Shown: positions 12,441-60,462 of the stretch, one piece after another
Layout of the letters: each line of letters opens with the position of its first letter
Position numbering within the stretch: the first letter of the stretch is position 1
NCBI GenBank assembly: GCA_013076295.1
Contig: RQOL01000532.1
Span: forward strand, 4,278,001-4,342,000
Direction of reading: 5' to 3'
DNA from: Sanderia malayensis
Lineage: Eukaryota > Cnidaria > Scyphozoa > Semaeostomeae > Pelagiidae
Length of the DNA: 64,000 nucleotides
Notes under the pieces: model-generated
Database searches by the model: none
What the model was told of the DNA's origin: nothing
Seen by the model: only the letters and a program-made list of their open reading frames with translations
Made by a program: the position numbers and the translations under genes

Positions 12441-13504
12441 TAATGGTAGGCAGGTTGGCCGAAGAAACAACGTTTTCTACAATACAACTTTTATTTTCTT
12501 CAACTAATAGTAGAAGCTTTGATTTTCCCTCTGCTACCTGACCTCTACGACCAGTAGCAAACTCTAGTTTCCCTGATCCTTTTCTTCTACGGGTAGTTCT
12601 AATCGCTGGACCCCACGACTCGGCGACTCTCGGATCCACGACTCAAAATACGACCCCTGTTTTTAAAACTGCCCAATTTGCATTATTTTCCGCTGTAATT
12701 ATTGTATCGAGGTCAAAGGCACTGTTTTGAAGTATGAAACGCAGTTTGGTGAGCATAGGAACAGAACGAAATGCTTTTCGAGTAAGCAATTTTGTCGAAA
12801 AAAGCACGAGAACAGTTTTAGAGTATTTCATATAAGTATTTTAAACGCAGACAAATGAAGGCAGAATACTGACAACAGAAACATATATCAATATAAGTAT
12901 ATGAATATTATAATATTATGATAATGGAAATATAACGAAACCAATTGAATATATGACAACGAAAGAAATACAAAAATAATAGAAAAGAATGAATGTATGA
13001 TAATGAAACAAAACAATTACGAGTATTTCTTACAGCGCAACCCCAAAGCTGCACAACGCAGCCATGGTGTTTGCATCCAAATAAGGACGTACCACAGCTG
13101 GTACCTGCACCAGCATTGGCAAAAAAAAGGTTTCTTCTCTTGATACAGTGTTCGTATGGGTGGTAATATGTGTTCGCAAGTCTTGCATGCATTTCGCCGG
13201 CCGGATCAATATATTGTCTTTCTTCTTTGGAGACAATGACCACTTGTCATAAGCGTTATCATTATTACATTTACTGTTATTCTATCATCTCTTTTTTCTC
13301 ACAACTGTATTAAATGAAACTTTTTCACTACACGAACCCCTTTCTATTTGTTTCATTCATGTTAATTTTTGTCTGGATTTTCCGCAGCAATAAGATAAAA
13401 TAAACTATAACCATCCTACCCGTCTTAGAGATTCCCCATTTTATATGCTATCGCGTTCCTGTAATTGCCGTTCCCCCTTTTAGAAAGAGCCGCTGCCAGC
13501 ATGC

Positions 13505-13942
13505 TTGACATTCCATCTGGATTACTGGCGAAAATTCACTCACTGTCTCTCATCGTCCTTGTTTTCTCGCAGCCAATGTGCTGTACGCGGACCTTCTCAT
13601 ATCTGCCGGGCTGAACCTCTTGATCAGCGATCTCTTTACGGCTTCGTAGTCAGCCTTTTCTTCTTCTGGTACCTTCTCAAAATGGTCACCAGCTGGTCCT
13701 CTCAAATATGCGGACACCATCCTTCCACATTTCGCCGTGTCCCATTCGTTGGCTCTTGCTATCCTTTCAAACGAAGCAAACCAATCAACCACATCTTCAT
13801 TGGGATAGCCATAAAAACGGTCTGGATGCACCAGAATCGAACGACTTGCTCCAAAGTTGATCTGTGCATCACCACTGCCACTCGCCTCGTTACTTGTTGC
13901 TGTTCTTCTTCTCGTAGTTATTCTTCTTAAAGCGTTTTAGCG
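13505..13942 (-). pseudogene. LTR-retrotransposon gag remnant, copy II
   Basis: Same gag frame as 1738-2175: HPDRFYGYPNEDVVDWFASF, then RANEWDTAKCGRMVSAYLRG, ending KQGR and the same TGA. Differences from copy I (V/I, A/V, G/R, K/E) are scattered. An LTR-like edge follows at 14029 (TGTAATGGTAGGCAGGTTGA). There is no pol. Because the stop is shared with copy I, the gag was already truncated before the block was duplicated. Confidence 0.6.
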
Positions 13943-14123
13943 CACAACCTTTAGCGCTGGCTAGAGATCGTAGATTTTGTTTCACCTAGCCTGTAATTAA
14001 TCGAATCCTACCTCCTGTCACCAATTGTAATGGTAGGCAGGTTGACCGAAGAAACAACGAGTTATTTATGAAACAAGTGTCTCCTCATCATAATCAGCTC
14101 ATTAACAGAACTGACAGATCTAA

Positions 14124-14429
14124 CTAACTAACTCGACAAATTACAGCGTTTAAATTAATTTCTGATAAGGTCACTCTTGGTCGGCCACGCTCAGGTTGCT
14201 TTTCTAAGCCAGCAAGCTCTTGTAGCTCTTGCTCTGTTATGATGTCTTCGTCCAGCGATTTGTTTAAGTCTCTGAAGAATTGGTCTTCTCGTCGTAGTTT
14301 TTGCACATAGTGGCTGATGGTGAGCAAGTTGTTTGTAGCATGTTTGAGTTCTTGGTGCGATTTTCTTATGTGGTCTGAGCACATGACGATGTTGCGGTCG
14401 AGAATGCGATTTATTGTTTTCCTGTCCAT
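14124..14429 (-). CDS. Hypothetical 101-aa charged protein, copy II
   Basis: Open from ATG (MDRKTINRILDRNI) to stop over exactly the same 101 codons as 2356-2661. The core HATNNLLTISHYVQKLRRED is identical; changes cluster at both ends. It is predicted helical and has no recognised domain. It lies upstream of the gag remnant on the same strand. Confidence 0.35.
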   Translation of the reverse strand: MDRKTINRILDRNIVMCSDHIRKSHQELKHATNNLLTISHYVQKLRREDQFFRDLNKSLDEDIITEQELQELAGLEKQPERGRPRVTLSEINLNAVICRVS

Positions 14430-14750
14430 ATCTGAAATTGTAAATGAAAAGTATAGTTCTTTGTTTAGATTTGCTGTAAGGGAAATGTTATTAACATTAG
14501 AATTGGGAAAAAAGATGTGATTACAAATGAATGAAATTATAGATGATACTCACCGATTAGAAGTCCGGGATGAAGTTTTCGTTGATGATTGTTGTTGTTG
14601 GTAGGTTGTAGAGTTGTGATTGGAAAAAGGTTATTAATGATATCAAACTTGGTTGGTATAGGCTTTTTTAGATTCGTTCTAGTGCCATCTGCTTACTTTG
14701 TGTAGATCAATCACCGATCAAAACAGATATATGTGCTTTGAGGGTTTCAT

Positions 14751-15395
14751 CTAGTTTAAGAAATGTTTATGACAATTGAATTCTGCATGCAGTTGTCTTG
14801 CTTCCTGACTGTTAATCTTTCCTTCCAGTTCTCTCGCACAACCTATACGTCGTAGAGATTCAATGTCGGCAACAAGGTTTGTTTCATGGAACGTATCTAG
14901 TAACACAAGGCAGATGTTGCTACCTGTGACTGGATGGTTGGCCTTCACACTCAAATCGTTATTATTGAGCCAGGGAAAGGAGCACTTGAGTACAGAACCG
15001 TTGCTTTTTGATATTACGAGTTATATTAACGCTAATGTCTTCAACACAGCCGCCTGGATTTAAATTGAAAGCATACGCCTCTTCGGATTGGTTATTAATT
15101 AAACTAATTACGTGATCCACAATTTCTCCATTGATCCACCGTGTGCCAAATAGGTAACGCAATGGATTGTATAACATACCTGTAATGTCGCAATTGCCTG
15201 TAATGTCGCAATTGCCGTGCTGTTGGCTGTGAATCCTGTTGACTAACATGGCTGCTGCAGCTGTATTAATAGGTTGGGTACTTTGGGGTTGCTCCACATG
15301 ACTCTGAATAGAGGACAGCCATTGTCGGTCTTGCTCTGCAACTCTTTCACGTTCTTTTCCTTCCAGAAATCCAAGGCACGTCATTAAGCCCTCTT
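14751..15395 (-). pseudogene. Ulp1/C48-like fragment plus unknown exon, copy II
   Basis: From 15384 downward the frame reads MTCLGFLEGKERERVAEQDR, followed by NPLRYLFGTRWINGEIVDHV and ISLINNQSEEAYAFNLN, ending LLSLAQ and a stop at 14962. RWINGEIVDHVISLIN resembles the opening helix of Ulp1-family proteases, but no His/Asp/Cys triad follows. Below it (14954-14751) is VKANHPVTGSN...RRIGCARELEG...LHAEFNCHKHFLN, a paralogue of the C-terminal half of the ORF at 15629-16093. There is an 18-bp tandem duplication at about 15180-15215 (GTAATGTCGCAATTGCCT). Confidence 0.3.
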
Positions 15396-33263: not shown

Positions 33264-34849
33264 TCACGCGTGTCTAAGAAAAATTGATCTTACCCAAGAG
33301 GTCCAAGTTCTTGAGCCTCGTTTTCGTATATTCCTTTCATCTTGTAGTAGCCTCAGTTCCTTGAGATATTTAACTTCATCTCGTGTCATCCTTTCGCACA
33401 TGGCTCTCGCCACAAATGGAACATCTTTTCGCAATTTTAGCAACCTCACATCTGCCGAATCAGTTTTCGATGACGTGTATATACCCTTACGTAAGCACAC
33501 CTCGGCCATAATCTTATTCTTATAGCGAAGCAGTTTGACGTCGTCCCAAAAATCTTGCCCCATAGAGTTCAGAACCTTCCAGAAAGTCTTATTATAGTGG
33601 TTATATAGCTGCACGTCGGCATAGCTCCAGCGTCGAATCTTACTCTTCAATTTATTGGTTATGTTTCGCTTACGGTATCGTTCGTTCAGATTGAAGTACA
33701 CCAGATCATCCAACTCTAAGCATAGCAAACGTTTGAGCAAAACAAGTGACTCATCAAAGTACTCCTTTATCATGACGAAATCAAATTCAGCATCCAAATG
33801 CTTGATTGCCTCACGAATTCTATTCTTGTTGTCAAAATCCCTTGACTCTAGGCCTAAATCATAGAACATGCCATTACGAATCAGCTTCAACCTGTCACTG
33901 TTGATTCGCAAATCTTGCGTGAGGACATAATTGACAAGAACACTCTGCGGATCGATGAAGAACTTTTCAAGTGGGTCCGACGAATTGTCCATGCCAAGGA
34001 TCTTATCAAGAGTCATGTAGGAAAATGTGCTCTCAAATTGAGTAACTGGGTCCCTGAGTATGGTTAAGTAAAGCGTATCGTTTGGCATTAATTGGTTCAT
34101 AATTTTCTTGTTATAACGTGCATGGTTGCAGAGTATGTTTGGAGTCGAACCGTTCAGTGGGTGAAATGAGTCCAGCTGGAAGTACCATGGCCAATCCAGA
34201 CGATTTTGTCCGACCTTTGGAAGAACAAAATTCAATCCTCGTGACTCACCAAATCTATTGAGTATATTAGTGACGGTACTACTGCCCGCTTTGTGGGTCT
34301 TAATGAATACGATATTTTTCTTTGGCGTACAGCGATACCTGCAATATAATGAAAGAGTTAGCTATTGGCAGCATGCAAGAATAAGAAAGGCTGCAAGTCA
34401 AAAGAGATACTTTCTGGCATTTCTTACTATCGGGAATGGTGGAACTTCCTTCCATAATTCATAAACAGCTACACAATAATAAATGGCAAAAATCTGACGA
34501 CAATAAAGACTGCATACGTTGGAAGGAAAATAATTCGCAGGTTAAATAAGTTGGTACTAACTAAATTAAATAAAAAATTCCATAATTTCACTCACTTCTT
34601 TGGAATATTAGCATTTATAGCAACATCGCTATCAATTTCCATGTTCATGGAAGTTGTTTTCCTGGCCAAGTCTTTGTTACAAACATAATAACGAAGAAAT
34701 ATGGGTACTATAATACAATTGATCAGCAGCACAAATAGACAATATTTCAGTTTTAGGAAAAAATTTCGCATCATTTTCTGGCTGGTAAAACTAGATATGA
34801 AGAAGTTGTTTTTGCTCGTTGTATATCTAAGCTTGGAGTCTCTTGGCAT
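33264..34849 (-). CDS. Galactose 3-O-sulfotransferase (Gal3ST family)
   Basis: Two exons: 34849-34596 and 34338-33264, 442 aa. The split Lys codon joins exactly (AA/G), with donor GTGAGT and acceptor TTGCAG. It is a type II Golgi membrane enzyme: short cytosolic tail, a membrane anchor at about residues 28-52 (LKLKYCLFVLLINCIIVPIF), a stem, then the catalytic domain. The PAPS-binding 5'-phosphosulfate loop is IVFIKTHKAGSSTVTNIL (about 94-111), and the 3'-phosphate site is LTILRDPVTQFESTFSYM. N-glycosylation sequons (NGS, NDT, NSS) are present. The family moves sulfate from PAPS to the 3-OH of galactose in glycolipids and glycans; human members are 420-490 aa, so length fits. The acceptor sugar cannot be told from sequence. 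It is divergent (head to head) with the TRP gene, 1.3 kb apart. Confidence 0.85.
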
Positions 34850-36183
34850 TGGAATATCAGCAAAGCATCAGAATCTATTATGAAGCCTTTCTTTTCAAAC
34901 TACACCTACCGTTAGATCACATCTATACGGTAAATTATCATTGGAGGTAAAGTATTCCACTTCAGATCCATCGTGAACTGCTTGATGCTTATAAAATCCG
35001 GTATTTTATTTTCTTCTCCTTCTTTTCTCAAAATTGTCTTTGTTTATCAGAGCAAAAATACATATCTTTTCAAGCCTGTTGATGCTTCCTTGATCAAACT
35101 CACATAACCAGGTAGTTACATAGTCTCAAAATCAATTCCATAATTTTCGATTTGAAGAATCTGACATGATTTTCATTTCAAGCTATTGCAGTTTTAAGAA
35201 TGCCATTCATGCAAAGCGTTATTCATCAAATAAGACAAAAAGATCAGGGCCTAAACTATATATCTACCAACAAAGGCAAACCAAGGACGGTCAATTGGAA
35301 CCAGCATAACCCAATTGACCGATTGGTCAACAGATCATGAGTACCTGTTGAGAATAGTAACCCGGTTAAATTATCAAGCAACAATTACAACCAAAACAGT
35401 AAAACACAGATACACAGATAATACAATCAAATCTTGATATTTCGAGTTAGCTGGATAACTGGTCTTTTAATACAACTAACTCCCAGCTTGATGAACATCT
35501 AATATAACACGGTACTTCTTGTTCGTTATACCGGGATTCTTCCACTCCATTTTACTCAAAACAATGACTTTTCAGTTAAAGCTTTAGAAAATACAGTTTC
35601 ATCTAGCTGAGTTGCATTTAAAGGAAAGAAACGCAATGATGAGCGTGAGTTCATACTCGAACACAGGTCCTATTCTCTGGACAAAAGATCTTTCGTTCAA
35701 GCTTTAATCAGTTGCAAAATATTCTGGAAAGATGACTAAGCCACATATGAGGAAAACAAGTAGTTAATATAAATTATACAGTGAAGTTTTGTAATGCCAC
35801 AAATAGCATTATATAACCAAACTCCATGCTCTTATAGCAACCATATTATTTAAGAACTAAACCACTAACAAAGCAACGTAGTCAAGCGAAATGGAATCCC
35901 TTTCAAATCTGTGCGAGGCATATGAGTGTAACGAATCAATTGTTTAAAAAGACTCTTTATTTATAACTATTTTGAAATTCAACACAACCGTAGGCCAAAG
36001 ATATCGAAAAATCAGGTTGGAATATTGAAGAGTGAAATTTAAGTTGAGCATCTCCAACAACTAATAAAAACTCAAACAAAACTGTTCTATATTAAGCCAG
36101 CAACGTGTTTGAAGGGCATACGATAAAAGCAAGTGGAACGCGGCAGTGGTAATCAGCAAAGCAGACTGAAGCTATTTTTGAAA
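34850..36183. other. Intergenic between divergent genes
   Basis: 1.3 kb between the Gal3ST start (minus) and the TRP start (plus), so it must hold both promoters. No clear TATA or repeat was seen. Confidence 0.5.
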
Positions 36184-39100
36184 ATGGTGCTTTCAACCTC
36201 CAATGGGCAATACAAAACCGAGCGAAGGTCTTCAACACGCAAAAGAAGGAATCCAATTTTACAAGATGAAGCTTCAAATACAAAAGAGAGTGAGCTACCA
36301 GGAAAGCTCTGCATTGAAACCAATTCAAACAAAACGAAAGAGTCCACGAAGAGCGGACTCGCTGGCAGCGAAGAGCTTTTGGCCTATTTTCACCGCCTTT
36401 CAGGTAAAGAAACCCATGGTGAATTGATTGACGTGCAATACATCGTGGCATTACTTGCAGCCGGGGCAGATATAAACGTCACGGACAGATATGGACAGAC
36501 AGCATTGCACGCAGCGGCACGCGACTGGCACCCAGATGTAGCGCGGTTTTTGATCGACAACGGCGCGGACGTAAACAAGCAGGATATATTCGGTAGAAGT
36601 CCGATTTTTATAGCAGCCGCACTTGACTATGCAGAGATGATAGAGTTCCTTGCCAGCAAAGGAGGTTAGTATAAATGCAGTGGAATTCTGATGTAATGAG
36701 ACATACTCTCTTCCATAGTATCATGCACTCAGGTATAGTCCGCCAAGTGTCCATTGAACGGCTTCATAGCAAATGTAAAGCATTATTTGAATATCCTTTT
36801 CTTTTAACTACTTCCATAAATGTTTCCAAATTCAATTCCTATTGTTTAGAAGTGTTGGCTTCTTTGGGGGGTCTTGGTCCCAGTTCCCTTGGCGAGACTT
36901 CTGAGCACATGCGTTCGATTTGGAGCAGTACGAGTACGAACACAACCAGTCAACGTTAGCCGCAGCCAACTCTGATTCACGAACCGAATTTACTTACTAT
37001 AGTTATATCTTTATATGTATTATCTTGTTGCTACCATTAAGGGAAATTATTCCGTACTCGATACCTTTTTTATGCATGCTTAACCTTACGACACAACACC
37101 TATTTAGCTAGGACTCTTTCTCATTAATACTCTACAAGCGTCCCCGTGTCTTGGCTAAAATCGTCATCTAAATTACTTGTATCCAAAGTAACACCAAAAG
37201 TATCCGAAATGGTTGTACTACGGGGCATTCCATCCTTTATAATTTCTTTCTGTCTGTGTATTTACAAGAAAATTCCTCGAAAGGGTCCGACCAAAAGGCC
37301 GACTCAAAGATGGGCAAAAATTGACAAATAAACGGAGAGATAGAGATATATTTCTGAAAAATTGTTAACGTTCCCTGCATTTATTAGAAGCCCTTTGACA
37401 AAGCTTTGACAAAGCTTCCGTAAGAGGTTTGGATACTTCGTTAGATGGGGCCGGGTGCGACATTGTCACGTTAAACTAATTTCAACCAGGTACTCCACAA
37501 AACGTTGAACGTCAAACAAAAACCTCTCAGGCCACCACAAACATAATGCAACTACTGTAATGCTGCTATTATTAGTTTTAATATTTTAGGGGGGCTTCTA
37601 TTCGAGGGACGCGCTTAAAAGAGGGAAGCGTTTATTAATAAACATCTAATGATGATTACACTTAGCGTGAAACTCTGAGAAACAACTAAAAAAGTCTGGT
37701 TCCAGAAGTATAATTTTAAAAAACATCTAAATATCTATTTCAAAGTCATCATCAACATCGTCTTCCTCGATGATGTTAAAAGAAGGACCAGCTTTGGTTC
37801 TGTGTGTTTCATATACACGCCCCTCTACAAGGGGGCGTTTAATAGAGGGGGCGTTTATTAAAAATAATTTTAATATAGGGGGCCTTTATTCGAGGGGGCG
37901 TTTAATCGAAGCATTACGGTACATGACTTTCCTTGCAGCAAATATTCACATGAGAACATTTGGGGAAATGCAAGTGCCTCTACATTACGCTGCAAAAAAC
38001 GAAGCAGTCTCTTCAATAAGATGCCTCATAAAGCTTGGCGCAGATACCTCAGCAAAGGATTATAAAGAAAGAGTTCCACTATACATAGCTGTCTATCATG
38101 GTAGGTCAAAATCTAGGTTAGTTCAAACTGAAAAGATTGCTTTAGAGCCCTTATCATGCATCCTTATACACACTATACAACAACTGTTACTTCTTTCTAA
38201 TCGGAGCCACATTCAAATCTCACACAAACACTCTAGGCTGTGATGATGCTGTGGAGTATCTATTGGACATTGGATGCCCCGCAGCAGTCTATGATAGCAA
38301 AGGAGAATCGGCAATTGCAATGATGGTTGAGAAGATGCCATCAATCGCTTACAAAGCATTGCATCAATTCATTATTACAGATGAAGTGGCTGGCAGAAAA
38401 ACGTATTTTCTGAGCTCGTTAGATTCGGCTCAATTGAAAGGCAACGATGAAAGAAAAACTGTTTTAGATGTAAGTAGCTAATGTATTGTGCCGTTAGATC
38501 AATTCATTGGCTAGCTAGCATTTCTAAATAATTACTTTTCATAACGCTTCGGCGCTGAACAGAGCCTCACACACCAAAAAGAGGCCTGACACTGATTACG
38601 ATAAGAAATTGACCATGTTGCAAAGGGAGTATCACTCATAAGCAACTTTTTTCATCAAATGTAAAACTGGTAACTGTAAGTGGGTATGATAATTATGCTA
38701 GTAACAATACTGCTTATGTTTCTATTTCAGTTGATAGTGAAATACAATGAAGTGGATCTACTGTATCATCCTCTGATTAGAAGACTTATGGAACTGCAAT
38801 GGAAACAATATGGGTTTCGTGGAGCTATGCTGTACCTAGTGATTAACCTTGTTTACGTTCTACTCTGGACTGCGTTGGTAATTATATATGGTGCCAAGCG
38901 CGATGCTTTCAGACCCAAATACTACTGGAATCTCATATTGGCATTTATCGCTTTGACCATGAACATCATATTTATGGTTGAGGTAAGAAATTGTTGTTGA
39001 TAATCAAGACCCCAGGTCCACGAAAAATTGTTACATTTTGTGCACTAAAGACACCGTTCAATCAGCTAAGGGCATTTTGACTCGCGACGCGCATGCGCAA

Positions 39101-42968: not shown

Positions 42969-45900
42969 CTATAGAAAATCATCATCTCCTATTTTCCCCA
43001 GGTACTCACATATAGAGTCATAACCTAGTTTTGTAATATGTTTATTATGAAGCAGTTGAACATGGGCCGAACATCTGTCAGGATTCCTGTCTAACAGTTT
43101 TCCAATCTACAAGGCATAAGAATTGGTTGCATAAGCTTTTCAGGTTTCCTGTAGGTATGAGGCCACTGATGATTTATACACCCTACCATACTCTTCTATT
43201 GCCAAACTGTATACCCGATATAACTAGATTTGCTTGAAAAGCAACAGGAATAGCTAATGGTTGCCCTTGTAATAGGCATGCTGCATAGCTGATAGTAACT
43301 ACAAATGCTTCAAGGCTTTAGTCTCCAATCGACAAAAAATAATGTTTCAGTAGAGTAAGAGCATCTTGCAAAAGAAGTTGTTGGAATCTAAAGCAAGGAG
43401 CTGGAGTAATAGTAGCAGTACCAATGCACAGACCCAAGACAGTTGAAATCTAAAGCAAGGAGCTGGAGTAATAGCAGCAGTACCAATGCACAGACCCAAG
43501 ACAGTTGAAATCTAAAGCAAGGAGCTGGAGTAATAGTAGCAGTACCAACGCGCAGACCCAAGACAGTTGAAATCTAAAGCAAGGAGCTGGAGTAATAGTA
43601 GCAGTACCAATGCACAGACCCAAGACAGTTGAAATCTAAAGCAAGGAGCTGGAGTAATAGTAGCAGTACCAACGCGCAGACCCAAGACAGTTGAAATCTA
43701 AAGCAAGGAGCTGGAGTAATAGTAGCAGTACCAACGCGCAGACCCAAGACAGTTGAAATCTAAAGCAAGGAGCTGGAGTAATAGTAGCAGTACCAACGCG
43801 CAGACCCAAGACAGTAAACGTGAACACATGCCAAACTAGCTAGCAACAAACCAAATATATCGCTCTGCAGTACACTGCATCAACGTTGACTCTCATAGTT
43901 AGCTTTCTACTGAAGGCATCGCCATTGAAAAAACCCTGCAAACATTCATGTATCGATCTACTATAACCTTACGTCTGTTTAAACCTGTTCACAGTCTTGC
44001 TATCATTAACCTTTAATCAGGTATACAACTCGGTGCATGTGCCTTGCCTTCGGTAAGCGCCGAAAAACCCCACATCTAAAAGATCGTAGTACTCTCACCC
44101 CTTTGCAAACAAACAACGATCTTCTGGTAGACAAAGAGTTGTAGTTTAAACGCGTATAAATGAGTAAGGAAATATCATGTGCAGAAACAGAGCAGAAGAA
44201 AATGAGGAGCCACTTACCTGTCCTTTGTATTTCCCATCTACAACCATAACAAGAGAGCCTTCTCGTTTTGGAATGACTGATTCAAGGTCATCCTGGGGAA
44301 CGTCTTCACACATAATAAAGAATAAAAAAAAATTAGAGAAGTCGATACAAATATATATGCAAATGATGAATTATAACATAATAGTAAAGATGATGAAGGA
44401 AAAATTGAAAGAAAAAGAGCTAGAGGAAGGCAGAGGCTCACTTCCATCTCAAGTCTCAGCCATTGGATGAAGATAAGCAAAAAAGAAATAATCAGAACAG
44501 AAAAGGACAGAGAATTATGGAGAGCCATGGCCGCCAACGTTCTGGCAGAACAGGGCACTTAGAGAGAGAGAGAGTAAAGACGATGAACTAAAGAAGGGAA
44601 CAGACAGGATGAAGAAACACAATATATGGTACTGGTAGAACAAATTGTTCATGAAAATAGGACTGGTTATTCACCTTCAATCAGTTTACCATCTTCTGTT
44701 TTACAAACACAGTATTCTTTGCTCACAATATCTACTATATCAATCTAGAAAAAAAAACAAGTCAGATGAAGTCAACTACTTGTTTATTACCATGAATAAG
44801 AAAAATGAACCAAACGTCTTGATGCAGGATGCTCTCTGCTGTGGTTGATTGCAATGCTTGCTGGCATGGGATTGACGTACCTTTTTGTAATAGAATCTTC
44901 CTTTTCTGAATGACTTACTGATAACACGAACGCGAATATTTGGAAACAACCAACTTGGCGTGTTTCTAGAAGCTGTCTTTCTACTAATTGATGCTCTAAA
45001 ATAACAAATATAGGAAGCACAATAAAGCAAATGACAGTATCATACAGGAATACAAACCAAGTAATCCCATTAATAAAATGCAATGAAATATGAAGACTAG
45101 AAATGATATGATAAGCAAAAAAGCTAGCACTTCTCAAGTAAACATCAAAAAACGACAGTACCAAACATGAAGTAGATTTGGTACAAATTACACTAAATAA
45201 TAAAAGACCTACTTGCTATCTTCTTCGCCATTCTTCTTTCGTTTCGCTTCTATCGACCGGTCTGTAGATTCGATTTTCCTTTTTCCTGCAAAACATAAGT
45301 TCTTCAATTGAAATAGTTGTTCAATTGAAATAGTATTTTGAGATCGAGAATCAACCACTTAGGCAACTAATATATGGCAAATCCAAGCACGGTACTTCTA
45401 ATCCATTACTATTGAAAAATTTATCATATGGAATATTTTGAGGCAAAATATCTGAAAGAGTAAAGAGAAATAACTCTAGCAAATAGATTAACCAAACCTG
45501 AAGCACTTGTTTGATATTCATCTTCGCTAACCAAGGTAATATAGTATTGACTTATTGTTGCTTGCTAGAGCAAAAAAGATACAGTTTGAATAAAGCAAGA
45601 ATATAAAAATTGCATGCCCAGCTTGAGCTTAAAAATCATACAGGTACCAAAATGCCTTAAAACTATCGGGAAGAAACGTGGATCGTGGGGAATCTGTAAG
45701 AAGCATGGATGTATGGACTCGCATCTGACAGCTATATGCGTGAAATCCAGGCTGTGTGCATTGGGAGCAGCATCACATAATCCATTTGCGATAAATTTAA
45801 GTCATCTGAGTCATTCATACTTGCTGACCAAGAGTTAGCTTGACTGTCACCCTTGCATTGTCTTCATCAACAGCAATAATCTGCGCAAACAATTAATAAA

Positions 45901-50583: not shown

Positions 50584-50786
50584 CCGAGAAAGACCCATTC
50601 GTGCTGCAAACCATCGGTTATTATTGCGGCTTGTGCAAACTCTGCCGTTGGTGTCAAAGAAGATTCAAGAAATGCAGAAGTGGTTACATCAAGAAGATTT
50701 GCAGCCTGTGCAAGTACTGCCGCTTGATTTTTTACAGGCGATTATTGGCACGTTATCGCCGAACACGTTTCCGCCGCATAGGCTGA
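50584..50786 (+). pseudogene. Cationic Cys-rich peptide gene, copy 1 (exon 3 only)
   Basis: Counterpart of exon 3 of the intact genes, with acceptor TTTTTAAACAG. 67 codons from AEKDPFVLQTIGYYC to RRTRFRRIG and TGA. All 8 cysteines keep their spacing although about a third of the other residues differ, so this copy is older than the others and its Cys frame was under selection. The TGA replaces the first repeat Tyr codon, and Arg-rich repeat sequence continues in frame beyond it. Upstream, the unit jumps from the region before exon 1 (GAGTCCCTT at about 50273) straight into intron 2, so the signal-peptide and acidic exons are deleted. As it stands it cannot make a secreted precursor unless it splices to a distant exon. 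Confidence 0.7.
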
Positions 50787-51590
50787 CGCCGGCTACGTTT
50801 CCGTCGTTTTAGTTACCGTCGTCTAAGATGGAATTAAACGTGGGAAGAGCATTGTTGACTCAGTTACTACTTATTGTTGCTTTTTATTTTTACGTTAAAT
50901 TCCTTTCTTATTTGCTGATCATCAAAAAGAAAACATTATGTGGTTGTTATTTTGTTGTTGTAAATCTTTCGAATCATCCCATGATTCACTGCTTATTGAT
51001 TTGTGTCGCAAGCAGCCAAGAAAACATTAAAGACATACGAAGGAGCCAAATAGACCCTTGTTCAAAATAAAACGCAATGCGCACGACACAATCAGTGAAC
51101 CAGTTGGAATCTGATTGGAAAATAAGATGTGTAATTACTGAACTTTAAGCTGTAATGCAATTTAAAACTAGACTTTGAAAATATCCAAGCCAATAAAGCT
51201 AAACCTTGAAAATGTTAAAACTTTGAGAATACGTTTGGTTAAGTTTGGGAAAGAGAAATAAGTAGAGGGAGTGTAATGTTAATCACATTTATGTTAATGA
51301 TATGTCAGTCCCAGGCCTTCGTGGCATATAGATAGACTTGATAGCACAAGACTATAAGATGGCGTTTGTCTTGGGTCCTTGGAGCACACAAAAGAAAAAC
51401 TCTACATCAAAGTTGTGCAAAAATAGTATACTTGGGGTCGGTTTTATACATGATTGCTTACAGGCACTGTATGCTCTGTGGTCCCTAAACACTGCAAAAC
51501 AAAGCTGCGAAATTCTCTTTGCTACAATGGATTACTAAAATGAAATTGCTTGTCACGTCTTTCATCACATAAGAATGAAAATGAAACAAC

Positions 51591-51651
51591 CTTGAGGAAA
51601 AAAGAAGTCGGAGACCCAAAATGACTTTGTCAAATCATGCAGTATCCATTT
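51591..51651 (-). pseudogene. Dynein exon fossil in unit 1
   Basis: 61-nt relic (KWILHDLTKSFWVSDFFFPQ). The acceptor TTTTAG of the true exon is TTTTCG here. A further truncated relic (TTTGGGTTTCTGACTTATTT on the minus strand) is at about 49019-49050. Confidence 0.75.
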
Positions 51652-53249
51652 CGAAAACTATTATTAATAAAAGTATATGTCAAATGATCAACCCAAAGTA
51701 ATGTTTCAAGAATCAGGCTTGTTAGCGGAAAAGAATCAGATTTCAAAGTTCAGTTCAATGTTCAATGACTATAGGAGTTCAAATAATGCCTTCTTACAAT
51801 GATTACAGCTAATAGCATCGAGTTTTCATTTACGAGCATACCAGAAACGCATAGCCCTCAATAAATAGTAAAATTCTTTTCTGAAGTAGTGTGTTGAAGG
51901 AGTGTACCGCTTAGTCAGTAACCCTAATCTTCCGACATAAATGGCAATCCATAATTACCGAATTGAAACAAGGAAATTTTGTTAAAAAAGTCAACTAGAA
52001 TCAAAAGTTGGGGAGTGGAGGGTGTTAAAAGGTATGGCACTCAAGGAACATCCAATATTATAATGAATGTAACGATAACAAAACAGAACTAGTACAAGTA
52101 AATAGGTCGTGAATAAGAAAAGCATAAAGATCAACATTTTAGCGTCCAACTGCGCAGTTACATAATCAGTCCATATATAGATAAAATAGTAGTAATAATA
52201 ATGATAACAAAGATAAAGATGCGAGTCATTTCAACAGAGGGCGCAAGACTGATACATGATGAACAATAGAGCGACGAACTGTCACTATTTTCCTAATGCT
52301 TACTGTGCAAAAGATGAATAGCTAAAATAAACACAAATGAAATCATTCAGATTCACCAACTGAACAAAGCGATGCTAGTTTCATTGCAATGTCTGAGTCG
52401 GAAAATGACAGTGAAATATCAGACTATTGACTAACTCAAGGAGTTTTTCGTCAGTTATTGCAAGAAATTTTATTCTCTTCCTCAATTTGGCAAAATGTAT
52501 TCAGTTACATGATGTTTGATCCAAAACAGAAAGGCAACAAAAAGGGTTGATATAAGCGTTGCAGAAAAGCAGAGGCGAGTCCCTGGGTTTACATTTCGTG
52601 CTGGTTTATGCGTCTTTTCTGGTTTACTAAAAGTTAATGACAACTTGACTCAATCTTCTTCCTTGTTCAACACAAACATTTGATTGATTGATTGACTTGA
52701 TTGGATTGGATTTCCTTGCTGGTTCAAAGCAAACAAAAAAGTAAACAAATGCAATTTTTAATTCTCCCAAAGCAATGTTTAAAGAATCAGGCTTATTAGC
52801 GGAAAAGGCCAAATATGGTCAGGTTTCAAAGTTCAGTTCAATGTTCAATGATTATAGGAGGCCAAATGATGCCTTCTTACAATGATTACAGCTAATAGCA
52901 TCAAGTTTTTATTTACGAGCATACCAGAAACGCATAGCTCTCAATAAATAGTAAAATCCTTTCCCGAAAACGCTCTTCACAATATTAAGTAGTGTGTTGA
53001 AGAATTGTACCGCCTAGTCAGTACTCCAAATCTTTCAACATAAATGGCAGTCCATAATTACCGAATTGAAAGAAGAAAGTGAAGTCAAAAATCTTCTTCC
53101 TTGTTCAACACAAACATTTGATTGATTGATTGACTTGAGTTGATTTCCTTCCTTGTTCAAAGCAAACAAAAAAGTAAATAAAAAGTGAAGTCAAACTCAG
53201 ACTTACTCAAAAGACATCAAAAATCCAAGCCAGCAAGTCAGAAGCAAAG

Positions 53250-54075
53250 ATGAAGCTTTGGATTTTATTGCTTGTTTGTGTTGCTTTGTGCAGCAAAGGT
53301 AAGTAATGCAAGTTTGCATGCTTTGTATACAAGCTATGCATATGCATAGTTTCATTCTATACCAAATACCATTTCAGAATACAATCAACCCAAAGTAATC
53401 ACATCTGTACATGCGAATTTAAAGAATTTAAAACTTTTCGTTTCAGGTGCTTTAAGCAGTGAAGATGATGGCCAGAAGCAACAGGTTTCTGTTGAAGATG
53501 AACTAAATGACCATGAACCCAGTGACGATGAGCCAAGTGACGATGAAGATAGTGAAACCGAGTTAGAACAATCTGATGATGATCCAGATGAAGTTGAAAC
53601 GCAAGGTAACCGTAACCACTTTACAATAGCACGCTTCCTTATAAATATTTCATCTCTCCCGAAAAAGACCTTTCCTTGAAAATTGGTCAAAATTTCTTTG
53701 GTTACAAACAACCCTGTCTGCTCTTATGTCAACGACCCTCTTCTTCTGATGTGTGTTAAACGTAAATCATAGCCCTCTTTCTCTTGTTTTTGAACAGCCG
53801 AGAAAGACCCATTCGTGGTGAAAGCGATTGCCTATTATTGCGAGATGTGCAGATACTGCCGTTTGTGTAAAAGAGGCCTGAAGAGATGCACACGTGGCTA
53901 CCTGAAGACGGCTTGCAGCCAGTGCAAGTACTGCCGCCCCAGCTACTACAAGCGATTATTGACACGTGTTCGCATCAGAATTCCCCGTATACGTATCCGC
54001 CGCATAGGCTACCGCCGTATACGTATCCGCCGCATAGGCTACCGCCGTGTACGTTTCCGCCGTATAAGATGGTAA
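53250..54075 (+). CDS. Secreted cationic Cys/Arg-rich peptide precursor, copy 2
   Basis: Three exons: 53250-53298, 53447-53605, 53798-54075 (161 aa; GT-AG, all junctions phase 1). Exon 1 is a signal peptide (MKLWILLLVCVALCSK). Exon 2 is an acidic pro-region of about 53 residues dominated by Asp/Glu (SDDEPSDDEDSETELEQSDD). Exon 3 is a 92-residue basic domain starting AEKDPFVVKAIAYYC. It has eight Cys spaced C-x2-C-x2-C-x2-C-x6-C-x8-C-x2-C-x2-C, then an Arg/Ile tail with two 10-residue units of the RRIGYRRIRI type, ending RRIRW. Acid pro-part against basic mature part, with signal peptide, is the usual plan of antimicrobial peptide precursors. The split of domains by exons supports processing near the exon 2/3 border, though no dibasic site is there. 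Function is inferred; a DNA/RNA- or polyanion-binding secreted protein is the alternative. Confidence 0.8.
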
Positions 54076-54299
54076 ACGTGGGAAGAGCATTGTTGACTCA
54101 GTGACTACTTATTGCTGCTTTATATTTTACGTTAAATTTTTATTATATTTGCTGATCATCAAGAAGAAAACATTATGTGGTTGTTATTTTGTTGTTGTAA
54201 ATCTACCGAATCATCCCATGATTCACTGCTCATTGATTTGTGTTGCAAGCAACCAAGAAAACATTAAAGACATACGAAGGAGCCAAATAGACCCTTTTT

Positions 54300-54312
54300 A
54301 AAAATAAAACGC
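54300..54312 (+). terminator. Poly(A) signal of peptide gene copy 2
   Basis: AAAAATAAAACGC lies about 230 bp after the stop. The same word follows copy 1 (51066), copy 3 (57501) and copy 4 (60690). Confidence 0.5.
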
Positions 54313-54974
54313 AATGAGCTCGACACAATCAGTCAACCAGTTGGAATCTGATTGGAAAATAAGATATGCAAATACGGAACTTTAAGCTGTAATGCAATTT
54401 AGAATTAGACTTTGAAAATATCCAAGCCAATAAAGCTAAACCTTGAAATTGTTAAAACTTTCAGCATACGTTTGTTTAATTTTGGGAAAGAGAAATAAGT
54501 AGAGGGAGTGTAATGTTAATCACATTTATATTAATTATATGTCAGTCCCAGGCTCCCGTGGTATATAATAGACTTGATAGCACAAGACTATAAGATGGCG
54601 TTTGTCTTGGGTCCTTTCTGAACTTTGCATAGGGAGCACACAAAAGAAAAACTCTACATCAAAGTTGTGCAAAAATAGTATACTTGGGGTCGGTTTTATA
54701 AATGTTTGCTTACAGGCACTGTATGCCCTCTTTAATACTTCTGTAGCTCGGTCGTCCCTGAACACAGATGTAAAATAACAACAGCATGAATCCAAAAGAT
54801 ATCAGAATGCTTGGTTTCTTACATGATTCTAAACAGCTAAGAAATTTTAGGAAATACAAAAACATAGAAGCTTAAAAGCAAAACAAAGCTGCAAAATTCT
54901 CTTTGCTACAATGGATTACTAAAATGAAATTGCTTGTCACGTCCCTCATCGCATAGGATTGAAAATGAAACAAC

Positions 54975-55035
54975 CTTGAGGAAAAAAGAAGTGGGAGACC
55001 CAAAATGAATTTGTCAAATCATGCAGTATCCATTT
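54975..55035 (-). pseudogene. Dynein exon fossil in unit 2
   Basis: A 61-nt match, same length, to the dynein exon 63679-63619. The frame is still open (KWILHDLTNSFWVS...FFFPQ). The acceptor AG is changed to CA (TTTTCAAAATGG); the donor side reads CAAG/GTTG. Confidence 0.75.
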
Positions 55036-56418
55036 TGAAAACTATTATTAATAAAAGTATATGTCAAACGATCAACCCAAAGTAATGTTTCAAAAATCAG
55101 GCTTATTAGCGGAAAAGGCCAAATAGGGTCAGGTTTCAAAGTTCAGTTCAATGTTCAATGACTATAGGAGTTCAAATAATGCCTTCTTACAATGATTACA
55201 GCTAATAGCATCGAGTTTTCATTTACGAGCATACCAGAAACGCATAGCACTCAATAAATAGTAAAATTCTTTTCTGAAGTAGTGTGTTGAAGGAGTGCAC
55301 CGCTTAGTCAGTAACCCTTATCTTCCGACATAAATGGCAATCCATAATTACCGAATTGAAACAAGGAAATTTTGTTAAAAAAGTCAACTAGAATCGAAAG
55401 TTGGGGAGTGGAGGGCGCAAGACTGATACGTGATGAACAATAGAGCGACAAACTGCCACTATTTTCCTAATGCTTACTGTGCAAAAGATGAATAGCTAAA
55501 ATAAACACAAATGAAATCATTCAGATTCACCAACTGAACAAAGCGATGCTAGTTTCATTGCAATGTCTGAGTCGGAAAGTGACAGTGAAATATCAGACTA
55601 TTGACTAACTCAAGGAGTTTTTCGTCAGTTATTGTCAGAAACTTGAATCTCTTCCTCAATTTGGTAAAATGTATTCAGTTACATGATGTTTGATCAAAAA
55701 CAGAAAGGCAACAAAAAGGGTTGATATAAGCGTTGCAGAAAAGCAGAGGCGAGTCCCTGGGTTTACATTTCGTGGTGGTTTATGCGTTTTTTCTGATTTA
55801 CTAAAAGTTAATGACAACTTGACTCAATCTTCTTCCTTGTTCAACACAAACATTTGATTGATTAATTGACTTGATTGGATTTCCTTGCTGGTTCAAAGAA
55901 AACAAAAAAGTAAACAAATGCCATTTTTAATTCTCCCAAAGTAATGTTTAAAGAATCAGGCTTATTAGCGGAAAAGACCAAATAGGGTAAGGTTTCAAAG
56001 TTCAGTTCAATGTTCAATGATTATAGGAGGCCAAATAATGCCTTCTTACAATGATTACAGCTAATAGCATCGAGTTTTCATTTACGAGCATACCAGAAAC
56101 GCATAGCTCTCAATAAATAGTAAAATCCTTTCCTGAAAATGCTCTTCACAATATTAAGTAGTGTGTTGAAGAATTGTACCGCCTGGTCAGTACTCCTAAT
56201 CTTTCAACATAAATGGCATTCCATAATTACCGAATTGAAAGAAGAAAGTGAAGTCAAAAATCTTCTTCCTTGTTCAACACAAACATTTGATTGATTGATT
56301 GACTTGAGTTGATTTCCTTCCTTGTTCAAAGCAAACAAAAAAGTAAATAAAAAGTGAAGTCAAACTCAAACTTACTCAAAAGACATCAAAAATCCAAGCC
56401 AGCAAGTCAGAAGCAAAG

Positions 56419-57274
56419 ATGAAGCTTTGGATTTTATTGCTTGTTTGTGTTGCTTTGTGCAGCAAAGGTAAGTAATGCAAGTTTGCATGCTTTGTATACA
56501 AGCTATGCATATGCATAGTTTCATTCTATACCAAATACCATTTCAGAAAACAATCAACCCAAAGTAATCACATCTGTACATTCGAATTTAAAGAATTTAA
56601 AACTTTTCGTTTCAGGTGCTTTAAGCAGTGAAGATGATGGCCAGAAGCAACAGGTTTCTGTTGAAGATGAACTAAATGACCATGAACCCAGTGACGATGA
56701 GCCAAGTGACGATGAAGATAGTGAAACCGAGTTAGAACAATCTGATGATGATCCAGATGAAGTTGAAACGCAAGGTAACCGTAACCACTTTACAATAGCA
56801 CGCTTCCTTATAAATATTTCATCTCTCCCGAAAAAGACCTTTCCTTGAAAATTGGTCAAAATTTCTTTGGTTACAAACAACCCTGTCTGCTCTTATGTCA
56901 ACGACCCTCTTCTTCTGATGTGTGTTAAACGTAAATCATAGCCCTCTTTCTCTTGTTTTTGAACAGCCGAGAAAGACCCATTCGTGGTGAAAGCGATTGC
57001 CTATTATTGCGAGATGTGCAGATACTGCCGTTTGTGTAAAAGAGGCCTGAAGAGATGCACACGTGGCTACCTGAAGAAGGCTTGCAGCCAGTGCAAGTAC
57101 TGCCGCCCCAGCTACTACAAGCGATTATTGACACGTGTTCGCATCAGAATTCCCCGTATACGTATCCGCCGCATAGGCTACCGCCGTATACGTATCCGCC
57201 GCATAGGCTACCGCCGTGTACGTTTCCGCCGCATAGGCTACCGCCGTATACGTATCCGCCGTATAAGATGGTAA
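56419..57274 (+). CDS. Secreted cationic Cys/Arg-rich peptide precursor, copy 3
   Basis: Exons 56419-56467, 56616-56774, 56967-57274; 171 aa. Signal peptide and acidic pro-region read the same as copy 2. In the Cys domain one residue differs (YLKKACSQC for YLKTACSQC). The tail is 10 residues longer than in copy 2, with three RRIGY units instead of two, by gain of one 30-bp repeat (CGCCGCATAGGCTACCGCCG...). Intron sequences are also nearly identical to copy 2, so the two are very recent duplicates or kept alike by gene conversion. The promoter side carries AAAGTAAATAAAAAGTGAAG about 65 nt before the ATG, a weak TATA candidate shared by copies 2-4. Confidence 0.8.
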
Positions 57275-58182
57275 ACGTGGGAAGAGCATTGTTGACTCAG
57301 TGACTACTTATTGCTGCTTTATATTTTACGTTAAATTTTTATTATATTTGCTGATCATCAAGAATAAAACATTATGTGGTTGTCATTTTGTTGTTGTAAA
57401 TCTACCGAATCATCCCATGATTCATTGCTTGTTGATTTGCGTTGCAAGCAGCCAAGAAAACATTAAAGACATACAAAGGAGCCAAATAGACCCTTGCTTA
57501 AAATAAAACTCAATGCGCTCGACACAATCAATGAACCAGTTGGAATCTGATTGGAAAATAAGATATGCAAATACTGAACTTTTAGCTGTAATGCAATTTA
57601 GAATTAGACTTTGAAAATATCCAAGCCAATAAAGCTAAACCTTGAAAATGTCAAAACTTTGAGAATACTTTTGGTTAAATTTGGGAAGGAGAAATAAGTA
57701 TAGAGGGAATGTAATGTTAATCACATTTATGTTAATTATGTCAGTCCCAGGTCCCCGTGGTATGTAGATAGACTTGATAGCACAAGACTATAAGATGGCG
57801 TTTGTCTTGGGTCCTTTCTGGAATTTTTATGGCATTTGAAAGGAAGCACACAAAAGAAAAACTATATACAAGTTGTGCAAAAATAAAATACTTTTGGTTG
57901 GTTTTATAAATGTTTGCTTACAGGCACTGCATGCCCTCTTTAATATTTCCGTAGCTCTGGCATCCTTTAACACAGATGTAAAATAACAACAGCATGAATC
58001 CAAAAGATATCAGAATGCATGGTTTCTTACATGATTCTAAACAGTTAAGAAATCTCAGGAAATACAAAAACATAGAAGCTTAAAAGCAAAACAAAGCTGC
58101 GAATTTCTCTTTGCTACAATGGATTACTAACATGAAATTGCTTGTCACATCCTTCATCACATAAGAATGAAAATGAAACAAC

Positions 58183-58243
58183 CTAGAGGAAAAAAGAAGT
58201 CGGAGACCCAAAATGACTTTGTCAAATCATGCAGTATCCATTT
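58183..58243 (-). pseudogene. Dynein exon fossil in unit 3
   Basis: Same 61-nt dynein-exon relic as 54975-55035 (KWILHDLTKSFWVSDFFFP). The acceptor AG is lost; the CAAG at the 3' edge became CTAG. Confidence 0.75.
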
Positions 58244-59622
58244 TGAAAACTATTATTAATAACAGTATATGTCAAATGATCAACCCAAAGTAATGTTTCA
58301 AGAATCAAGCTTGTTAGCGGAAAAGAATAAGGTTTCAAAGTTCAGTTCAATGTTCAATGACTATAGGAGGCCAAATAATGCCTTCTTACAATGATTACAG
58401 CTAATAGCATCGAGTTTTCATTTACGAGCATACAAGAAACGCATAGCCCTCAATAAATAGTAGAATTCTTTTCTGAAGTAGTGTGTTGAAGAAGTGTACC
58501 GCCTAGTCAGTAACCCTAATCTTCCGACATAAATGGCATTCCATAATTACCGAATTGAAACAAGGAAATTTTGTTAAAAAAGTCAACTAGAATCAAAAGT
58601 TGGGGAGTGGAGGGCGCAAGACTGATACGTGATGAACAATAGAGCGACGAACTGTCACTATTTTCCATATGCTTACTATGCAAAAGATGAATAGCTAAAG
58701 TAAACACAAATGAAAACATTCAGATTCACAAACCGAACAAAGCGATGCTAGTTTCATTGCAATGTCTAAGTCGGAAAGTGACAGTGAAATATCAGACTAA
58801 TGACTAACTCAAGAAGTTTTTCGTCAGTTATTGTCAGAAACTTTATTCTCTTCCTCAATTTGGTAAAATGTATTCAGTTACATGATGTTTGATCAAAAAC
58901 AGAAAGGCAACAAAAAGGGTTGATATAAGCGTTGCAGAAAAGCAGAGGCGAGTCCCTTGGTTTATATTTCGTGCTGCTACATGCGTGCTTTTCTTGTTTA
59001 CTAAATGTTAATGACGACTTGTTGACTCAATCTTCTTCCTTGTTCAACACAAAGATTTGATTGATTAATTGACTTGATTGGATTTCCTCGCTGGTTCAAA
59101 GCAAACAAAAAGTAAACAAATGCCATTTTCAATCCTTCCAAAGTAGCTAATGTTTAAAGAATCAGGCAGTAGCAGAAAAGACCAAATAGGGTCAGGTTTC
59201 AAAGTTCAGTTCAATGTTCAATGACTATAGGAGGCCAAATAATGCCTTCTTACAATAATTACAGCTAATAGCATCGAGTTTTCATTTACGAGCATACCAG
59301 AAGCGCATAGCTCTCAATAAATAGTAAAATCTATTTCTGAAAATGCTCTTTACAATATTAAGTAGTGTGTTGAAGAATTGTACCGCCTGGTCAGTACTCC
59401 TAATCTTTCAACATAAATGGCAGTCCATAATTACCGAATTGAAAGAAGAAAGTGAAGTCAAAAATCTTCTTCCTTGTTCAACACAAACATTTGATTGATT
59501 GATTGACTTGAGTTGATTTCCTTCCTTGTTCAAAGCAAACAAAAAAGTAAATAAAAAGTGAAGTCAAACTCAGACTTACTCAAAATGCAACAGAAATTCA
59601 AGCCAGCAAGTCAGAAGCAAAG

Positions 59623-60462
59623 ATGAAGCTTTGGATTTTATTGCTTGTTTGTGTTGCTTTGTGCAGCAAAGGTAAGTAATGCAAGTTTGCATATACTTTA
59701 TATACAAACCATGCATAGTTTCATTCTATACCAAATACCGTTTCAGAAAACAATGAACCCAAATTAATCAGATATGTACATGCGAATTTAACGAATTTAG
59801 CATTTTTCGTTTCAGGTGCTTTAAGCAGTGAAGATGGTGGCCAGAAGCAACAGGTTTCTGATGAAGATGAACTAATTGACGATGAACCAAATGAAGATGA
59901 ATCAAATGATGATGAAGATAACAAAACCGAGTTAGAACAATCTGATGATCATCCAGACCAAGTTGAAGCGCAAGGTAACCACATTTTCACTCTCAACCAA
60001 TTCAAACTTATTAGGGTTGATTAAAATGAAAGTGAATTAACATTTTGCAATAGCACTTCCTTATAAATATTTCATCTCTCCCGAAAAATATCTTTCGTTG
60101 AAAATTGGTCAAAATTTCTTTGGTTACAAACAACCCTGTCTGCTCTTAACGACCATCTTCTTCTGATGTGTGTTGAACGTAAATCGTAGCCCTCTTTCTC
60201 TTGTTTTTGAACAGCCGAGAAAGACCCATTCGTGGTGAAAGCGATTGCCTATTATTGCGAGATGTGCAGATACTGCCGTTTGTGTAAAAGAGGCCTGAAG
60301 AGATGCACACGTGGCTACCTGAAGACGGCTTGCAGCCAGTGCAAGTACTGCCGCCCCAGCTACTACAAGCGATTATTGACACGTATTCGCATCAGAATTC
60401 CCCGTATACGTATCCGCCGCATAGGCTACCGCCGTATACGTATCCGCCGTATAAGATGGTAA
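59623..60462 (+). CDS. Secreted cationic Cys/Arg-rich peptide precursor, copy 4
   Basis: Exons 59623-59671, 59816-59974, 60215-60462; 151 aa. The signal peptide is identical to copies 2 and 3. The acidic exon differs at about a dozen residues (DEDELIDDEPNEDESNDDED) but keeps its length and overall charge. The Cys domain is identical to copy 2. The tail has only one RRIGY unit, so it is 10 residues shorter than copy 2 and 20 shorter than copy 3. Intron 2 is longer and keeps sequence (AATGAAAGTGAATTAA) also found before copy 1 exon 3, which places copy 4 closer to the ancestral arrangement. An outward face of acid/basic charge balance is kept despite change, which suggests the pro-region works as a neutraliser. 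Confidence 0.8.

What the first reader, a model, noticed from the sequence alone, without database searches (positions are those of the whole stretch)
50584..60462. Tandem family of secreted peptides: acidic pro-region, 8-Cys domain, Arg-rich repeat tail
Seen: three complete three-exon genes and one relic encode signal peptide / Asp-Glu-rich exon / basic exon with eight Cys in fixed spacing and an RRIGYRRIRI-type tail. Known: charge-balanced precursors with tandem gene copies are typical of antimicrobial peptides. Inference: an undescribed host-defence peptide family. I recall no named family with this Cys spacing joined to such a tail.
Basis: partly seen in the sequence, partly recalled or inferred. 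Interest (0 to 1): 0.88.

Follow-up and report, generated by a model that had tools for sequence, protein, structure and literature searches.

The report
Jellyfish cysteine-arginine secreted peptide family
A jellyfish genome carries a tandem cluster of genes for small secreted peptides, each with a negatively charged guard segment, a knot of eight cysteines and a positively charged arginine-rich repeat tail; they look like antimicrobial peptides of an unnamed family, although no test of that was found.

Summary
Three intact three-exon genes and one exon-3 relic lie where stated; a fourth intact gene starts 6.2 kb beyond the window. The genome is almost certainly the scyphozoan Sanderia malayensis: the contig length equals the published scaffold N50 to the base. 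The eight-cysteine pattern is real. It recurs, all eight kept, in two proteins from other sources that this genome does not encode as such (46-55% identical). No curated family or solved structure tried matches.

The window genes are one branch of a larger set. At E 1e-3, 48 further places in this genome match a cysteine-free sister precursor: acidic stretch, 'xPF' junction, [RP]-R-hydrophobic-x-hydrophobic pentads. Most sister ends that were read are Gly or Gly-Lys, as for amidation. Sister and window genes share signal-exon and 3' DNA, so the cysteine module was gained or lost between alike ends. An intronless copy with the exact splice junction indicates that a sister gene is transcribed and spliced.

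Most likely these are antimicrobial peptides held inert by an acidic pro-segment, working like Hydra periculins/arminins and mussel myticalins, without shown kinship to any. Function, and expression of the window genes, are untested. Polycation glue or matrix protein, or venom component, remain live rivals.

The parts
53250..53298 (+). gene 1 exon 1: signal peptide MKLWILLLVCVALCSK(G)
   Evidence: GT donor at 53299, phase 1
53447..53605 (+). gene 1 exon 2: acidic pro-region, 24 Asp/Glu and 1 Lys/Arg
53798..54075 (+). gene 1 exon 3: 8-Cys domain plus Arg pentad tail, stop included
   Evidence: tail array 53985-54066
56419..56467 (+). gene 2 exon 1: signal peptide
56616..56774 (+). gene 2 exon 2: acidic pro-region, identical to that of gene 1
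56967..57274 (+). gene 2 exon 3: 8-Cys domain plus longest tail of the three
   Evidence: tail array 57154-57265
59623..59671 (+). gene 3 exon 1: signal peptide
   Evidence: whole protein equals P0001
59816..59974 (+). gene 3 exon 2: acidic pro-region, 22 Asp/Glu and 2 Lys/Arg
60215..60462 (+). gene 3 exon 3: 8-Cys domain plus shortest tail
   Evidence: tail array 60402-60453
50584..50837 (+). relic: exon 3 only, all eight Cys in register, in-frame TGA in the tail, no exons 1 and 2 upstream
54076..54165 (+). start of the 3' flank of gene 1; with the tail it matches the cysteine-free sister genes at 80-81% over 174-219 bp

Best explanation
These are prepropeptides of a scyphozoan antimicrobial peptide family. 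Proposed working: the signal peptide sends the chain into the secretory route. The acidic exon-2 segment pairs with the basic exon-3 part and keeps it inert and soluble inside the cell. Cleavage near the conserved 'DP(F)' junction frees a cationic peptide with two tools: a compact helical head held by disulfides (four, if all eight Cys pair), and an Arg/hydrophobic pentad tail. The tail would bind anionic bacterial surfaces (LPS, teichoic acid, lipid head groups) and the head would help to disturb the membrane. Cysteine-free sister genes would supply the tail alone. Shown: the gene anatomy, the Cys pattern kept in relatives, the shared ends with the sister genes, the size of the family, and, from an intronless copy, splicing of one sister gene. 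Inferred: secretion, cleavage, disulfide pairing, antimicrobial action, and release into mucus, gut or egg surface.
For: Anatomy and charge split. All eight Cys, DP, YC, CKYC, a Tyr and a Leu are invariant in 6 of 6 aligned cores, two of them from proteins of other sources, P0008 and P0010; P0008 matches this genome at 52-58% only, P0010 at 39-52% where the match covers its Cys core. A B-type sister query gave 117 rows; the 71 rows with E up to 1e-3 merge into 50 places, 2 of them window genes 1 and 2. Four B-type copies read carry AKR before EPFFRR and end in RWG; C-type copies mostly end in WGK, FGK or IGK, fitting convertase and amidation processing. A and B genes share signal-exon DNA (77-79% over 62 bp) and tail plus 3' flank (80-81% over 174-219 bp). 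An intronless copy of a B gene is identical at 401 of 417 positions, the other 16 being a 1-base and a 15-base gap, and crosses the exact splice junction. One relative, L054, adds a basic C-terminal stretch that looks like an amphipathic helix (by eye). Pentad counts are reached by at most 1 of 1000 shuffles in 9 of 12 tails. The AlphaFold2 model from 7 sequences has a helical Cys domain, block pLDDT 66-81. Analogues: Hydra periculin/arminin (PMC10945409, passages), mussel myticalins (PMC12294457, passages); a C-terminal poly-Arg tail can turn an inert helical peptide into a potent one (PMC12371492, abstract).
Against: No transcript or peptide of the window genes was seen; the public proteins are predicted models, and one (P0002) leaves the frame after residue 113. 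The window genes lack the KR site of their B-type sisters (AEKDPF, or AENDPF in gene 4) and genes 1-3 end in W, not G. Tail beta-amphipathicity does not exceed shuffles at the 5% level in 10 of 12 tails; pentads fail in 3 of 12 (gene 4, P0008, P0012). No kB-like site lies near the cluster. Core dN/dS of 2.4 between genes 1 and 4 is not significant (19 against 2 changes, p = 0.38). No fold match, but only 4 chains were compared. Some C-type copies are out of frame or could not be modelled (6 of 9 signal exons).
Confidence: 0.6

Rival explanations
1. Structural or adhesive polycation. The acidic pro-segment and the Arg/Tyr-rich tail form a complex coacervate, as in marine glues, cuticle or mucus, and the Cys domain cross-links it. 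Repeat-length change would then tune mechanics.
For: Tails are long, regular repeats rich in Arg and Tyr/Phe; acidic segments hold several Ser-Asp/Glu sites that could be phosphorylated (seen in the sequence); some 50 places suggest bulk product. The comparison with marine glues is recalled.
Against: KR sites and amidation-type ends in sister genes suit a processed short peptide; window peptides are small; a compact, strictly spaced 8-Cys head is unusual for a glue (judgement); one relative carries an amphipathic-looking basic C-terminus.
Confidence: 0.2
2. Venom or nematocyst-matrix component. A cationic Cys-rich peptide is stored in capsules, where it binds polyanions or acts on prey membranes.
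For: The host is a stinging jellyfish; Cys-rich, pro-segment-bearing, tandemly duplicated peptides are common in cnidarian venoms (recalled).
Against: The Cys pattern differs from the two frameworks described in the passages read (Ueq 12-1 and SCRiP, PMC5450702), and no solved chain matches by sequence beyond chance. The cysteine-free bulk of the family is unlike disulfide-rich venom peptides (judgement). No venom proteome was searched.
Confidence: 0.1
3. Multicopy neuropeptide or hormone precursor: RR sites in the tail are cut to give short repeated peptides.
For: RR in most pentads, and GK or G at the end of sister genes.
Against: Cutting at every RR would leave tri- or tetrapeptides, most without Gly at the end for amidation; no acidic spacers between units; in the window genes the tail follows a Cys domain.
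Confidence: 0.03
4. Not protein genes: repeats and chance ORFs.
For: Tail DNA is a minisatellite, open in another frame in a long sister copy (L042); introns and flanks of genes 1-3 are nearly as alike as the exons.
Against: Eight Cys kept in relatives of 46-55% identity; an identical predicted protein in a public set; exact spliced junction in the intronless copy of a sister gene.
Confidence: 0.02

Closest known systems
Periculins of Hydra
   Same: Signal peptide, opposite charges in two halves, complex Cys pattern, clustered paralogues from tandem duplication (PMC10945409, passages).
   Different: Described there as confined to Hydra, with no homologues found in other cnidarians; no Arg pentad tail is mentioned in the passages read; the periculin sequence was not in hand, so spacing was not compared.
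Arminins of Hydra
   Same: Negative N-terminal and positive C-terminal region (PMC4820302, passages); no Cys (recalled), like the sister genes here.
   Different: Described as confined to Hydra (PMC10945409); conserved acidic part with a scarcely conserved basic part; no pentad repeats known to me.
Myticalins of mussels
   Same: Signal peptide, Arg-rich cationic peptide, PRX repeats with mostly hydrophobic X in subfamily A, anionic extension, dibasic site, amidation site in many, clustered genes (PMC12294457, passages).
   Different: The acidic part is C-terminal, so the order is reversed; described as lacking Cys (abstract start); bivalve; repeats of 3, not 5.
Aurelin of Aurelia
   Same: A defence peptide of a scyphozoan; the only one isolated from scyphozoan tissue according to the 2025 review PMC12194522 (passages).
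   Different: 40 residues, likened to defensins and to sea-anemone K+ channel blockers (PMC4820302, passages); no Arg tail described there.
SCRiPs (small Cys-rich proteins, of corals by recall)
   Same: Cnidarian peptides with eight Cys (PMC5450702, passages).
   Different: Marked by a triplet of Cys at the C-terminus, which is absent here.

Membership tests
Periculin | signal peptide and bipartite charge | tested here: met
   feature from PMC10945409; signal peptide judged by eye
Periculin | sequence homology or same Cys spacing | tested here: inconclusive
   two searches of the 5.8 billion proteins returned no protein named periculin, but whether Hydra periculins are in that set was not checked and their sequence was not in hand
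Periculin | restricted to Hydra | tested here: not met
   host is a scyphozoan
Arminin | acidic N-terminal part and basic C-terminal part | tested here: met
   and sister genes
Arminin | no Cys domain (recalled) | tested here: not met
   window genes have 8 Cys in exon 3; the B-type sisters have none after the signal peptide
Myticalin | cationic peptide before a C-terminal acidic extension | tested here: not met
   order is reversed (PMC12294457)
Myticalin | dibasic site between cationic and anionic parts | tested here: not met
   window genes AEKDPF, gene 4 AENDPF; KR present in the B-type sisters
Aurelin / ShK-like / defensin | six Cys framework | tested here: not met
   eight Cys in C-x2-C rows; six Cys for defensins from PMC12194522, for aurelin recalled
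SCRiP | CCC triplet at the C-terminus | tested here: not met
   no adjacent Cys in exon 3 (feature from PMC5450702)
Antimicrobial peptide (functional class) | kills or inhibits microbes | not testable with these tools
   no activity data
Antimicrobial peptide (functional class) | secreted precursor with cationic mature part | tested here: met
   signal peptide judged by eye, no predictor run; the cut is inferred
Any Pfam, NCBIfam or PDB sequence family | score above the family cut-off, or E below 1e-3 in the PDB | tested here: not met
   gene 1 in Pfam and its exon 3 in PDB, core profile in PDB (best E 0.15), P0001/P0008/P0010 in NCBIfam; exception: P0010's tail is just over the Pfam Pentapeptide cut-off (20.3 against 20.2), judged a composition match

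The most novel reading that the evidence does not exclude
Scyphozoan jellyfish possess their own large antimicrobial superfamily built on Arg/hydrophobic pentads. One lineage grafted a new 8-Cys helical head between a kept signal/acidic front and a kept tail, making two-tool peptides. This would be the main, so far unseen, chemical defence of true jellyfish, evolved apart from Hydra's own families.
Probability: 0.45. Interest if true: 0.78.

Novelty: new variant of a known kind. Interest (0 to 1): 0.64.

Why it matters
A 2025 review names aurelin as the only antimicrobial peptide yet isolated from scyphozoan tissue (PMC12194522, passages), and periculin and arminin genes of Hydra are said to have no relatives elsewhere (PMC10945409, passages). 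A family with some 50 places in one genome would fill that gap and make a direct test possible of how jellyfish control microbes on mucus, gut and eggs. The cluster also shows a module gained or lost between conserved ends, and tail length changing by whole repeat units.

Tried and rejected

In one search gene 4 aligned badly to gene 1 outside the coding exons, and in exon 1, because the long alignment slipped; its exon 1 is 100% identical in protein.

Counts of the larger family: an early merge of 60 of the 117 rows gave 52 places; it held two weak rows (E 0.0025 and 0.29) and two window genes. The recount with the 71 rows of E up to 1e-3 gave 50 places, 2 of them window genes; the 46 weaker rows were left out. 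19 of the 50 lie on five of the smaller contigs and may be allelic or repeated assembly. One of the 50 is the intronless copy. Not every place is an intact gene. C-type models: of 9 signal exons tried, 2 gave a full product, 1 was cut off by the end of the fetched piece and 6 gave no model under my simple splice rules; at least one copy (L021/L027) runs out of frame in its tail.

Not checked: a 2025 machine screen of 111 cnidarian species reports 3130 predicted peptides (PMC11820242, outline and abstract only); fragments of this family could be among them.
Full report
WHAT IS THERE. The window holds three intact genes of the same plan and one relic, at the stated places. Exon 1 encodes a hydrophobic signal peptide, MKLWILLLVCVALCSK. 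Exon 2 encodes 53 residues with 22-24 Asp/Glu and 1-2 Lys/Arg. Exon 3 encodes 82-102 residues with 27-38 Lys/Arg, eight Cys and a repeat tail. Both introns are GT-AG and phase 1. The precursor is not exactly neutral: after the signal peptide it carries 33, 39 and 29 basic against 27, 27 and 25 acidic residues. The relic keeps exon 3 with all eight Cys and carries an in-frame TGA in the tail; no exon 1 or 2 match lies upstream of it, and two blocks that flank those exons in gene 3 lie close together beside the relic, as after a deletion.

WHERE IT COMES FROM. The window lies in a contig of 4,676,287 bases, in a genome of 184,004,477 bases in 918 contigs. The published Sanderia malayensis assembly has 184,371,355 bases, 970 scaffolds and a scaffold N50 of 4,676,287 (PMC7305137, passages). 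I take the organism to be this scyphozoan, family Pelagiidae. That is an inference, but the length agrees to the base.

MORE THAN CHANCE. The Cys pattern with a middle gap of 3-6 occurs four times in the six-frame window, at the four copies, not in 130 kb of 13 other loci from this genome, and not in 20 shuffles. A public predicted protein, P0001, equals gene 3 exactly; P0002 follows gene 1 for 113 residues and then leaves the frame; P0004 joins gene 4 (first 135 residues) to the next gene (first 91 of 110 residues). A profile search then found P0008 and P0010. P0008 is not encoded as such in this genome, the best match being 58%; its id has the same style as P0001, so Rhopilema esculentum, the other species of that paper, is a guess. 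P0010 comes from an ENA contig of 10,321 bases of unstated organism. Both keep all eight Cys, with a middle gap of 5 and 3 instead of 6, the DP junction, YC, CKYC and an Arg tail. In the window's genome the Cys core is found at five places, all in one 21-kb stretch of this contig; no other match covering the core has E under 0.01 in the three protein searches made.

THE LARGER FAMILY. Searching the genome with exon 3 also hit many loci in the tail alone. Reading some of them showed precursors with acidic stretch and Arg tail but no Cys core. B-type genes have two exons; one lies next to gene 4. Their signal exon is 77-79% identical in DNA to that of gene 1, and their tail plus 3' flank is 80-81% identical. 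They carry LAKR before EPFFRR and end in RWG. C-type genes form an array on contig 616, with three exons, a different signal peptide, DPKPFFRR, and mostly the end WGK; one copy runs out of frame. A B-type query gave 117 rows; the 71 with E up to 1e-3, merged within 1 kb, are 50 places, of which 2 are window genes 1 and 2, one is the intronless copy below, and 19 lie on five of the smaller contigs and may be allelic. Another copy (L054) has a signal-like start, acidic stretch, pentads and a basic, amphipathic-looking end, TAIKKILKKITGGGG. The common pentad is [R/P]-R-hydrophobic-x-hydrophobic. In 9 of 12 tails the number of pentads is reached by at most 1 of 1000 shuffles; gene 4, P0008 and P0012 fail that mark.

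EVIDENCE OF EXPRESSION. At 2,349,656-2,350,072 of contig 571 an intronless copy of the B gene aligns over 417 positions, 401 identical and 16 in two gaps (1 base, and one 15-base repeat unit), with no mismatch, and crosses the exact exon 1-exon 2 junction. It lacks the start of exon 1, and no poly-A was seen in the stretch printed. It is best read as a recent copy of a spliced transcript made in a cell whose DNA is inherited. It speaks for the sister gene, not for the window genes. The published gene models were made with RNA-seq support (PMC7305137, passages), but which models had reads is not known to me.

EVOLUTION. Genes 1-3 sit in repeat units about 3.2 kb apart whose flanks are 91-99% alike. 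Exon 3 of genes 1 and 3 is identical over the 168-bp codon-aligned core and has one mismatch over the 171-bp stretch, whereas exon 2 differs at 18 of 159 sites (Fisher p about 1.5e-5 with 1 of 171; one search had used 0 of 171). This suggests recent gene conversion of exon 3. Tail lengths of genes 1-3 differ by 30-bp units. Core dN/dS between genes 1 and 4 is 2.4 but not significant; between the relic and the others it is 0.44-0.70.

WHAT IT WORKS LIKE. Hydra's antimicrobial peptides are described as having a signal peptide, split charge, complex Cys patterns and clustered paralogues (PMC10945409, passages). Mussel myticalins have Arg-rich peptides, in one subfamily repeats with hydrophobic partners, a separable acidic part, dibasic cleavage, amidation sites and clustered genes, in the reverse order (PMC12294457, passages). 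A C-terminal poly-Arg tail can turn an inert helical peptide into a potent one (PMC12371492, abstract). The window genes combine these traits in a form that fails at least one listed feature of each family compared; periculin homology itself could not be decided. It is a likeness of working, not kinship.

LIMITS. No transcript, peptide, activity or cell type was seen for the window genes. The signal peptide was judged by eye. The window genes lack the KR site of their sisters, so where the mature peptide starts is open; the conserved DP(F) suggests the place. No kB-like site lies near the cluster. Literature: six tail strings occur in 0 held papers; the rows listed by topic searches (12 of 15 papers; 4 of 4; 12 of 38; 10 of 11; 8 of 1,349; 8 of 320) show no title or abstract start that describes such a family. 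A screen of 111 cnidarian species (PMC11820242, outline and abstract) may hold fragments of it. The library lacks most subscription papers.

VERDICT. A real secreted-peptide family with a Cys framework kept across three sources, unnamed in the libraries tried, part of a larger Arg-pentad set in a jellyfish; most likely antimicrobial.

Noticed in passing
C571:2349656-2350072 (L037 4656-5072): Intronless copy of a B-type sister gene with exact splice junction, 401 of 417 positions identical, the rest two gaps (one an extra 15-bp repeat unit): a recent copy of a spliced transcript.
   Followed up: yes
window 53798-54075 against 60215-60462: Exon-3 core of genes 1 and 3 has at most one mismatch while exon 2 differs at 18 of 159 sites, as if exon 3 alone had been homogenised by conversion.
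   Followed up: partly
C479:4351150-4351907 and 4508091-4508850: Two B-type genes about 157 kb apart are 95% identical over 974 bases, intron included; a recent duplication.
   Followed up: partly
C569:3792101-3793500 (L054), minus strand: Single open frame with signal-like start, acidic stretch, Arg pentads and a basic amphipathic-looking end closing in GGGG; an unusual family member.
   Followed up: partly
P0009 (JGI contig of 1,133 bases): Acidic stretch, KDP junction and PRFRF/PRIRL pentads joined to a different Cys-bearing C-terminal part: the pentad tail may be combined with more than one Cys module.
   Followed up: partly
window 254-3372 and 11460-15126: Long direct duplication (91-99% in the five pieces found); the ORF at 296-724 (minus) has a TRAF-type zinc finger by Pfam.
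   Followed up: no
window 6787-10974: Repeat units of about 1.74 kb (up to three copies, 72-100% alike) with ORFs of unknown kind.
   Followed up: no
window 43380-43815: Seven copies of a 62-bp minisatellite, 97% matches.
   Followed up: no
window 33270-34361, minus strand; 36127-36666, plus strand: Uninterrupted galactose-3-O-sulfotransferase ORF (Pfam 4.7e-73), and nearby an ORF with ankyrin repeats.
   Followed up: no
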